Positions 4,735 through 61,100 of a stretch of 64,000 nucleotides of DNA are shown here, in pieces. Both the position numbers and the translations under genes were made by a program. The notes below the pieces were generated by a model that was not told where the DNA came from, did not search any database, and was given only the letters and a program-made list of their open reading frames with translations. The DNA lies in contig NC_092577.1 of assembly GCF_037975245.1 (NCBI RefSeq), positions 29,568,398 through 29,632,397 of the forward strand, read 5' to 3'. This stretch comes from Apostichopus japonicus (lineage: Eukaryota; Echinodermata; Holothuroidea; Aspidochirotida; Stichopodidae). Positions within the stretch are counted from its first letter, which is position 1. Each line of letters starts with the position of its first letter.

Positions 4735-5063
4735 TTAATTGCAGAATTGTCCGTTGACCAAGTTGCTTGGAAGAGTCCTGCAATCATCAATCGGGAAAGT
4801 AATAAACGACGTAGCTTCAATTTCGTCCGAGCAGGACTGTTGGACCATCTCACAGACATCCCGGCAGATGTCGGTTCCAAAGCCGGTCCTTGGGCAAGGC
4901 TTGTACAGTGAAGCGCAGAGAAGAGTTGGATACAGTGCATCACACGTGAACACGGAGTTGATATGGGCAATCAAGAAGGGTTCTACGACTGATTCGTCTA
5001 CCGTTAGCACCCCTGTAGAGTACGGAAGGAATTGCCGACATCTCGGACTGATGGACACGCAAG
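4735..5063 (-). CDS. Last exon: Frizzled-like CRD 14 with stop codon
   Basis: The acceptor is ...CATGAACAG at 5065-5064. Two bases complete a codon, then the exon reads [15 protein letters not shown] and continues through [31 protein letters not shown] and PIDDC to GQFCN and the stop TAA at 4737-4735. All ten CRD cysteines are present. The protein ends two residues after the tenth cysteine region begins, with no C-terminal anchor or transmembrane segment, which favours a secreted product. Confidence 0.85.

Positions 5064-61100: not shown

What the first reader, a model, noticed from the sequence alone, without database searches (positions are those of the whole stretch)
4735..61100. A single giant gene joining a serine protease to 14 Frizzled-type CRDs and mucin-like stalks
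Seen: 41 exons in one orientation, joined phases, domain cysteines and one terminal stop. Known: corin has two CRDs with a C-terminal protease, and MFRP has CUB, LDLa and one CRD. Inference: this combines both module sets with the protease near the N-terminus and a tail of about 2,900 residues. Such a protein could present many Wnt-, lipid- or glycan-binding sites on a stalk, with the protease acting on bound or nearby ligand. I do not know a described protein with this count and order.
Basis: partly seen in the sequence, partly recalled or inferred. Interest (0 to 1): 0.85.

Follow-up and report, generated by a model that had tools for sequence, protein, structure and literature searches.

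The report
Protease-headed protein with 14 Frizzled-type domains
An echinoderm chromosome appears to carry one very large gene whose protein begins with a digestive-enzyme-like protease and continues as a long, probably sugar-coated stalk bearing 14 Wnt-receptor-like domains, nine of which have lost the same pair of cysteines, and a second locus on the same chromosome repeats its unusual start.

Summary
It encodes EGF, linker, S1 protease (Pfam Trypsin 1-220/220, E 1.2e-47; His, Asp, Ser present), Fz, CUB, LDLa, Fz, then 12 more Fz with four EGF and mucin-like exons. The organism is an echinoderm by mitochondrial code. No RNA was available. The protease joint is supported twice: its last exon ends in a phase-1 splice site at the domain end, and a second locus 1.5 Mb away repeats Trypsin-Fz-CUB-LDLa with the same splice site, while that locus's last protease ends in a stop. 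New here: nine CRDs (Fz3-Fz11) lack exactly the cysteines of one known disulfide (C1-C5), group beside the 10-Cys Fz12, and grew partly by recent tandem duplication; close exon copies lie on two other contigs. Corrections: the gene extends upstream of the window (another EGF exon); its start is unproven; the S1 pocket is not trypsin-like; signal-peptide-like stretches before Fz1 and Fz4-Fz6 leave other starts possible. I class it as a new variant of mosaic S1 proteases, not corin or MFRP.

The parts
60987..61100 (-). EGF-like exon (phase 1-1), first domain exon inside the window
   Evidence: Pfam EGF E 6.5e-10; splice sites
55687..55788 (-). Thr/Ser-rich linker exon
53126..53288 (-). S1 protease exon a: CG....R|IIGG activation site and TAAHC (phase 1-2)
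49996..50398 (-). S1 protease exon b: catalytic Asp in ENDVALLHL (phase 2-0)
48693..48861 (-). S1 protease exon c: GDSGGP, ending in a phase-1 donor at the domain end
   Evidence: joined domain Pfam Trypsin 1-220/220 E 1.2e-47
45622..45948 (-). Fz1 CRD, 10 Cys
43797..44162 (-). CUB domain
   Evidence: Pfam CUB E 7.5e-13
42960..43073 (-). LDLa domain, 6 Cys
   Evidence: Pfam Ldl_recept_a E 3.5e-10; boundary
41805..42131 (-). Fz2 CRD, 10 Cys, with a GC-AG intron after it
41344..41379 (-). Thr-rich linker exon (36 nt, uncertain)
40343..40375 (-). Thr-rich linker exon (33 nt, uncertain)
37460..37807 (-). Fz3 CRD, 8 Cys
37006..37167 (-). mucin-like 9-residue repeats
36415..36762 (-). Fz4 CRD, 8 Cys
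35936..36124 (-). mucin-like 9-residue repeats
35345..35692 (-). Fz5 CRD, 8 Cys
34837..35052 (-). mucin-like 9-residue repeats
34247..34594 (-). Fz6 CRD, 8 Cys; structure predicted
33429..33977 (-). mucin-like exon, 27-bp coding minisatellite (TTRATTEGV)
33321..33341 (-). short linker exon (21 nt, uncertain)
32069..32443 (-). Fz7 CRD, 8 Cys
30157..30852 (-). mucin-like stretch plus Fz8 CRD, 8 Cys
28547..28765 (-). mucin-like exon
26115..26225 (-). EGF-like exon
   Evidence: Pfam EGF E 1.4e-5
25962..25988 (-). short linker exon (27 nt, uncertain)
25183..25362 (-). mucin-like exon
22920..23030 (-). EGF-like exon
   Evidence: Pfam EGF E 6.3e-7
22767..22793 (-). short linker exon (27 nt, uncertain)
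21685..22194 (-). mucin-like stretch plus Fz9 CRD, 8 Cys
18775..19452 (-). mucin-like stretch plus Fz10 CRD, 8 Cys
18240..18284 (-). linker exon (45 nt, uncertain)
17581..17934 (-). Fz11 CRD, 8 Cys
16131..16226 (-). mucin-like exon
15080..15121 (-). linker exon (42 nt, uncertain)
14389..14502 (-). EGF-like exon
   Evidence: Pfam EGF E 4.5e-5
13529..13591 (-). mucin-like exon
12770..12883 (-). EGF-like exon
   Evidence: Pfam EGF E 4.5e-7
11986..12051 (-). mucin-like exon
10957..11319 (-). Fz12 CRD, 10 Cys, joins the 8-Cys group on the tree
10287..10508 (-). mucin-like exon
9106..9417 (-). Fz13 CRD, 10 Cys
8191..8277 (-). Thr-rich exon
7208..7243 (-). linker exon (36 nt, uncertain)
4735..5063 (-). 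Fz14 CRD, 10 Cys, terminal exon with TAA one residue after the last Cys

Best explanation
It is most likely a single animal gene for one giant extracellular mosaic protease. Read from sequence: EGF modules, then an S1 protease zymogen with its activation site and catalytic triad, then Fz-CUB-LDLa-Fz, then about 2,590 residues of Thr-rich mucin-like segments carrying 12 more Fz CRDs and four EGFs, ending without a membrane or GPI segment. Inferred: after cleavage at R|IIGG by another protease, the catalytic domain stays covalently joined to the stalk at its C-terminus and disulfide-joined to the EGF part at its N-terminus (the Cys of [12 protein letters not shown] and the Cys of VRPICL, partners in related proteases as I recall, are both present). 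The stalk would be O-glycosylated and extended, and the CRDs would act as many weak binding sites that hold the protease on a ligand-rich surface or gel, so that cleavage is set by where the array binds. The 8-Cys CRDs probably arose once from a 10-Cys CRD like Fz12 by losing both partners of the C1-C5 disulfide, and part of them were then amplified as exon-intron units.
For: One frame and one stop over 44 exons; all phase 1-1 except the three protease exons and the terminal exon. Full Trypsin profile match across three joined exons, with TAAHC, ENDVALL and GDSGGP. The protease's last exon ends in a phase-1 donor at the domain end in the window and at Trypsin1 of the paralogous locus C17:28.0 Mb, whereas that locus's Trypsin2 ends in a stop. 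Of six other GDSGGP exons fetched (20 were first asked for), five were readable: four end in a stop with no such donor, one (C17:9.71 Mb) has the same donor. The paralogous locus repeats Trypsin-Fz-CUB-LDLa in order and phase. Thr is 16% and T+S+P 35% of the model. All 9 reduced CRDs lack the same two Cys, a pair known to bond (PMC6938638, passage), and the seven of them put on a tree, with two dispersed copies, form one group (95/93; with Fz12 99/94). Fz3-Fz6 lie 1.05-1.1 kb apart with dS 0.01-0.04.
Against: No transcript or protein was seen. AATAAA occurs 6 times in the 2.7-kb trypsin-Fz1 intron and 12 times between Fz2 and Fz3, against about 2.6 and 4.1 expected from base composition, so early ends are possible; the single AATAAA behind the stop (4416) is itself near the chance number, 0.9. 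Signal-peptide-like first exons: in 4.7-61.1 kb the gene strand has 12 against 1 on the other strand; eight of the 12 lie in or run into CRD exons, leaving four (54075, 48122, 38952, 7562). One, 48122-48017, could open a separate gene at Fz1, and in-frame ATG plus hydrophobic stretches stand directly before Fz4, Fz5 and Fz6; the T-rich splice tract may explain these. Upstream of the window no signal peptide stands above chance (3 candidates, 4 on the control strand). Gly at the position of enteropeptidase's Asp189 and Phe at its Gly216 (numbering recalled) leave substrate preference, even activity, open. The first CRD after Trypsin1 of the paralogue is weak (Fz E 0.0048, below cut-off). Binding by any CRD is untested.
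Confidence: 0.58

Rival explanations
1. Two or more genes or starts: an EGF-protease gene ending near 48.7 kb and a CRD/mucin gene starting between 48.7 and 45.9 kb, near 37.8 kb, or with alternative starts just before Fz4-Fz6.
For: Reading through the protease donor meets a stop after about ten codons; AATAAA signals in the joints; SP-like exons at 48122-48017 and 38952-38745 and in-frame SP-like stretches running into Fz4-Fz6; gene-prediction errors are a known source of false architectures (PMC3927609, passages).
Against: Phase-1 donor exactly at the end of the protease domain, shared with the paralogue's Trypsin1 and absent from 4 of 5 readable other protease ends; Trypsin-Fz-CUB-LDLa order repeated at C17:28.0 Mb; frame and phase continuous through 45.9 and 37.8 kb.
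Confidence: 0.26
2. A mainly structural, mucin-like matrix, cuticle or adhesive protein in which the protease only processes the protein itself or is not active, and the CRDs serve as folded spacers or cross-linkers. (May be true together with the single-gene reading.)
For: Thr-rich repeats take up much of the model; altered S1 pocket and an extra Cys in the CGC motif before TAAHC; reduced CRDs with recent copy-number change.
Against: Triad and activation site are intact, which is not expected after long loss of activity.
Confidence: 0.3
3. A secreted Wnt or lipid sink: many CRDs mop up Wnts, and the protease cleaves bound Wnt or matrix.
For: CRD fold; the closest solved relatives are Frizzled, sFRP-3 and Sizzled CRDs.
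Against: Ten of the other 13 CRDs are only 16-39% identical to Fz6, and 9 of 14 lack a canonical disulfide; for most non-Frizzled, non-sFRP CRDs Wnt relevance is unknown (PMC6747125, abstract).
Confidence: 0.15
4. Assembly artefact: the near-identical Fz3-Fz6 units are falsely expanded.
For: Units differ by only 2-7 of 345 coding bases; reads were not available.
Against: Units differ in spacing and mucin repeat number; of the other ten CRDs only Fz8 and Fz9 are near-identical (5 of 285 bases).
Confidence: 0.07

Closest known systems
Corin (type II transmembrane serine protease)
   Same: S1 protease, Fz CRDs and LDLa in one polypeptide
   Different: Corin has a transmembrane segment, two Fz, eight LDLa, an SRCR and a C-terminal protease (PMC10376093, passage); here 14 Fz, one LDLa, no SRCR found, protease ahead of the array, mucin-like stalk
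MFRP
   Same: CUB, LDLa and Fz CRD together
   Different: MFRP is a type II membrane protein with two CUB, an LDLa and one C-terminal CRD (PMC4214712, passage) and, as recalled, no protease
Ovochymase 2 (OVCH2)
   Same: protease plus a C-terminal run of extracellular modules (tandem CUB; PMC10850435, abstract and passages)
   Different: no Fz, LDLa, EGF or mucin-like stalk in what I read
Polyserases
   Same: mosaic S1 proteases with several catalytic domains in one chain (PMC1435904, start of abstract in listing); the paralogous locus here also has two protease domains
   Different: as recalled, no Fz array
Paralogous locus C17:28.01-28.08 Mb of the same genome
   Same: Trypsin-Fz-CUB-LDLa order, phase-1 donor after the protease
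   Different: preceded by a predicted hydrophobic exon and four full and one partial HYR-type exons, rich in CUB and LDLa, all four CRDs read have 10 Cys, second protease with stop; one gene or two not settled

Membership tests
S1 (chymotrypsin-like) peptidase | full catalytic domain with His, Asp, Ser triad | tested here: met
   Pfam Trypsin 1-220/220 E 1.2e-47; TAAHC, ENDVALL, GDSGGP
S1 (chymotrypsin-like) peptidase | trypsin-like specificity (Asp189) | tested here: not met
   Gly aligns with the enteropeptidase Asp and Phe with its Gly216 (numbering recalled)
Fz CRD family (PF01392) | CRD fold | tested here: met
Fz CRD family (PF01392) | ten cysteines in five disulfides | tested here: inconclusive
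   met in number by 5 of 14 (Fz1, 2, 12, 13, 14), not met by 9 of 14 (Fz3-Fz11, 8 Cys); 9 of 14 match PF01392 alone at E<=0.01
Corin | C-terminal protease domain | tested here: not met
   protease precedes 2,969 residues of modules in the joined model
Corin | two Fz, eight LDLa and SRCR | tested here: not met
   14 Fz, one LDLa; no SRCR in Pfam scans of nearly the whole model; exons upstream of the window were searched only in part
Corin | N-terminal transmembrane segment | tested here: inconclusive
   5' end lies outside the window and is not established
MFRP | two CUB, LDLa, single C-terminal CRD | tested here: not met
   one CUB, one LDLa, 14 CRDs, plus a protease
Ovochymase | protease followed by CUB repeats | tested here: not met
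   protease is followed by Fz first and by one CUB only
Secreted protein | signal peptide | tested here: inconclusive
   candidate exon 87911-87842 upstream, but 3 such candidates against 4 on the control strand

The most novel reading that the evidence does not exclude
A protease-armed recognition array: a catalytic head joined to a variable-length mucin stalk whose CRDs form a lineage-specific, reduced 8-Cys class that arose once, has recently been amplified as 1-kb exon units and has seeded other chromosomes, in the manner of an echinoderm diversifying receptor family (as SRCR genes are) rather than of Wnt signalling.
Probability: 0.2. Interest if true: 0.78.

Novelty: new variant of a known kind. 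Interest (0 to 1): 0.56.

Why it matters
As far as I recall, Fz CRDs usually occur once or twice per protein; a protein with 14, headed by a protease, would extend what animal extracellular proteins can be built like. The paired loss of two bonded cysteines, kept through later duplication, is a natural experiment on which CRD disulfides the fold needs, and the near-identical exon units would let exon duplication within a gene be followed in living populations.

Tried and rejected
A signal-peptide search upstream (61.1-124 kb) gave MKGTLTELSFRLLVLVAMSAAQS at 87911-87842 with a good phase-1 donor, but the opposite strand gave as many candidates; I do not claim it. A frameshifted calcium-binding-EGF-like exon near 83.0 kb was left out of the model. 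The first automatic gene models missed part of the protease and two domain ends; those were set by hand from the splice sites. SEA-like exons of the paralogous locus were not confirmed by Pfam (0 families for both), so I do not call them SEA. Whether the paralogous locus is one gene or two was not settled. Fz4-Fz7 alone match no Pfam family. Ten paper searches listed no protein of this architecture in the rows I saw; they cover open-licence PubMed Central only, and automatic protein annotations of echinoderm genomes could not be searched. A 2012 paper on divergent CRDs (Pei and Grishin; the identifier tried was recalled) is not held, so whether CRDs without C1-C5 have been described is open.

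Full report
What was checked. The window is G000:C17:29568398-29632397 of a 671.6 Mb, 35-contig genome. The mitochondrial contig's COX1 has AAA where Asn, ATA where Ile and AGA where Ser are expected, which is the echinoderm code; 'sea cucumber' is only my recollection of similar COX1 sequences and rests on no call. The described gene lies on the minus strand.

Gene model. I corrected by hand the protease exons, the LDLa acceptor (43073) and the Fz2 donor, a GC-AG site that keeps the tenth cysteine. The result is 44 exons from 61100 to 4735, 9,860 nt, 3,285 residues and a single TAA. All exons are phase 1-1 except the three protease exons and the terminal one. Control scores with the same program: 1488 on this strand, 274 on the opposite, 230 on the reversed strand, 66-78 on three shuffles; the coding statistics were trained on the gene itself.

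Is it one gene? The protease domain ends '...[11 protein letters not shown]' followed at once by a phase-1 donor; the next exon, Fz1, starts in phase 1. A second locus on the same contig, C17:27.99-28.08 Mb, has on the same strand a predicted hydrophobic exon, four full and one partial HYR-type exons (two of these and a further one downstream were tested in Pfam, 1.7e-17 to 6.7e-16), Trypsin1 (3e-65), Fz, CUB, LDLa, further CUB, LDLa and Fz, and Trypsin2 (3.6e-57). Trypsin1 ends in the same phase-1 donor; Trypsin2 ends in a stop. Of six other protease end exons fetched (20 first asked for), one was unreadable, four end in a stop without such a donor, and one at C17:9.71 Mb has the donor. Shared order and shared exon ending argue that the protease is internal in both loci. 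The paralogue's first CRD after Trypsin1 is weak in Pfam (E 0.0048, below cut-off). The window's protease has no close copy: apart from its own three exons, the other 25 of 28 matches listed at E<=1e-8 are 30-55% identical. Against one gene: no RNA; AATAAA 6 and 12 times in the two long joints against about 2.6 and 4.1 expected; SP-like exons at 48122-48017 and 38952-38745, and in-frame SP-like stretches running into Fz4, Fz5 and Fz6. In all, 12 such candidates were counted on the gene strand of 4.7-61.1 kb against 1 on the other strand; eight of the 12 lie in or run into CRD exons.

Ends of the gene. Downstream, the stop follows one residue after the last CRD cysteine, with no membrane or GPI segment; an AATAAA lies 319 nt on, near the chance number. 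Upstream the window is not the limit: an EGF exon lies at 66730-66620 (Pfam EGF 1.1e-7). A signal-peptide-like exon at 87911-87842 looks good, but such candidates are at chance level there (3 against 4).

The reduced CRDs. Fz1, 2, 12, 13 and 14 have ten cysteines; Fz3-Fz11 have eight, all lacking the first and fifth by the alignment. A review gives the CRD bonds as C1-C5, C2-C4, C3-C8, C6-C10, C7-C9 (PMC6938638, passage), so exactly one bond would be gone. On a tree of 22 CRDs (12 of the window's 14, Fz4 and Fz5 left out as near-copies; the rest from other loci of this genome) the nine eight-cysteine rows, seven of them from the window, are one group (95/93) and join Fz12 (99/94); 12 of 19 inner branches are open and the bootstrap had not settled. 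Fz3-Fz6 are spaced 1.05-1.1 kb apart and their coding parts differ by 2-7 of 345 bases. Searching the genome with Fz9 gave 17 matches at E<=0.01: 10 in the window, and 7 elsewhere, of which C2:12.01 Mb, C2:11.93 Mb and C9:11.25 Mb are 85-89% identical and carry flanking intron and minisatellite DNA like the window's.

How it probably works. The activation site R|IIGG, the upstream cysteine and its likely partner, and the intact triad point to a zymogen that, once cut by another enzyme, remains tied to both its EGF part and its stalk. The Thr-rich segments (T+S+P 35% of the model) suggest a glycosylated, extended stalk, and the CRDs many weak binding sites, so location and avidity would set what the protease cuts. 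Gly at enteropeptidase's Asp189 and Phe at its Gly216 (alignment, numbering recalled) predict a specificity unlike trypsin. Binding, glycosylation and activity are inferred, not shown.

Place among known proteins. Corin (PMC10376093, passage) and MFRP (PMC4214712, passage) share modules, but the tests of protease position, LDLa, CUB and CRD number fail. OVCH2 (PMC10850435, abstract and passages) shows that a protease joined to a C-terminal run of modules is not new in itself. I therefore class this as a new variant of mosaic S1 proteases; the number of CRDs, the protease-first order with Fz, the mucin stalk and the 8-Cys CRD class are what is new here, within the limits of the searches made.

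Noticed in passing
L033, L034, L035 (C2:12.01, C2:11.93, C9:11.25 Mb): Single 8-Cys-type CRD exons with flanking intron and 24-bp minisatellite DNA like the window's, 85-89% identical to Fz9, beside shared repeat sequence; the L034 copy has lost a conserved Cys. Looks like exon dispersal as genomic DNA.
   Followed up: partly
L024-L028 (C12:19.01-19.05 Mb): Another cluster of 14 Fz hits on one strand; the two looked at closely are of the 10-Cys type. Possibly another multi-CRD gene.
   Followed up: partly
L031 (C2:9.50-9.51 Mb): Tandem units with SRCR-like and Fz exons, about 3.47 kb apart (SRCR identified by eye).
   Followed up: no
Paralogous locus L015-L023, local 62.1-60.9 kb: The catalytic-His exon of Trypsin1 is tandemly repeated (five tblastn matches, two with in-frame stops).
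   Followed up: no
L038 (C17:9.71 Mb): A further protease whose last domain exon ends in a phase-1 donor, so possibly another internal-protease mosaic gene on this contig.
   Followed up: no
window 36850-36610, 35780-35540, 34682-34442 (-): In-frame ATG and hydrophobic stretch directly before Fz4, Fz5 and Fz6 that could serve as signal peptides of alternative starts, or merely reflect the T-rich splice tract.
   Followed up: partly
window 46671-47075 (-) and 47620-48000 (+): Two inverted, very similar non-LTR-retroelement-like fragments inside the protease-Fz1 intron (identified by eye).
   Followed up: no
window 54137-55508, 49107-49962, 61240-62253, 32501-33258: Long minisatellites in introns or the 5' flank of the model (periods 35, 31, 68 and 81 bp).
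   Followed up: no
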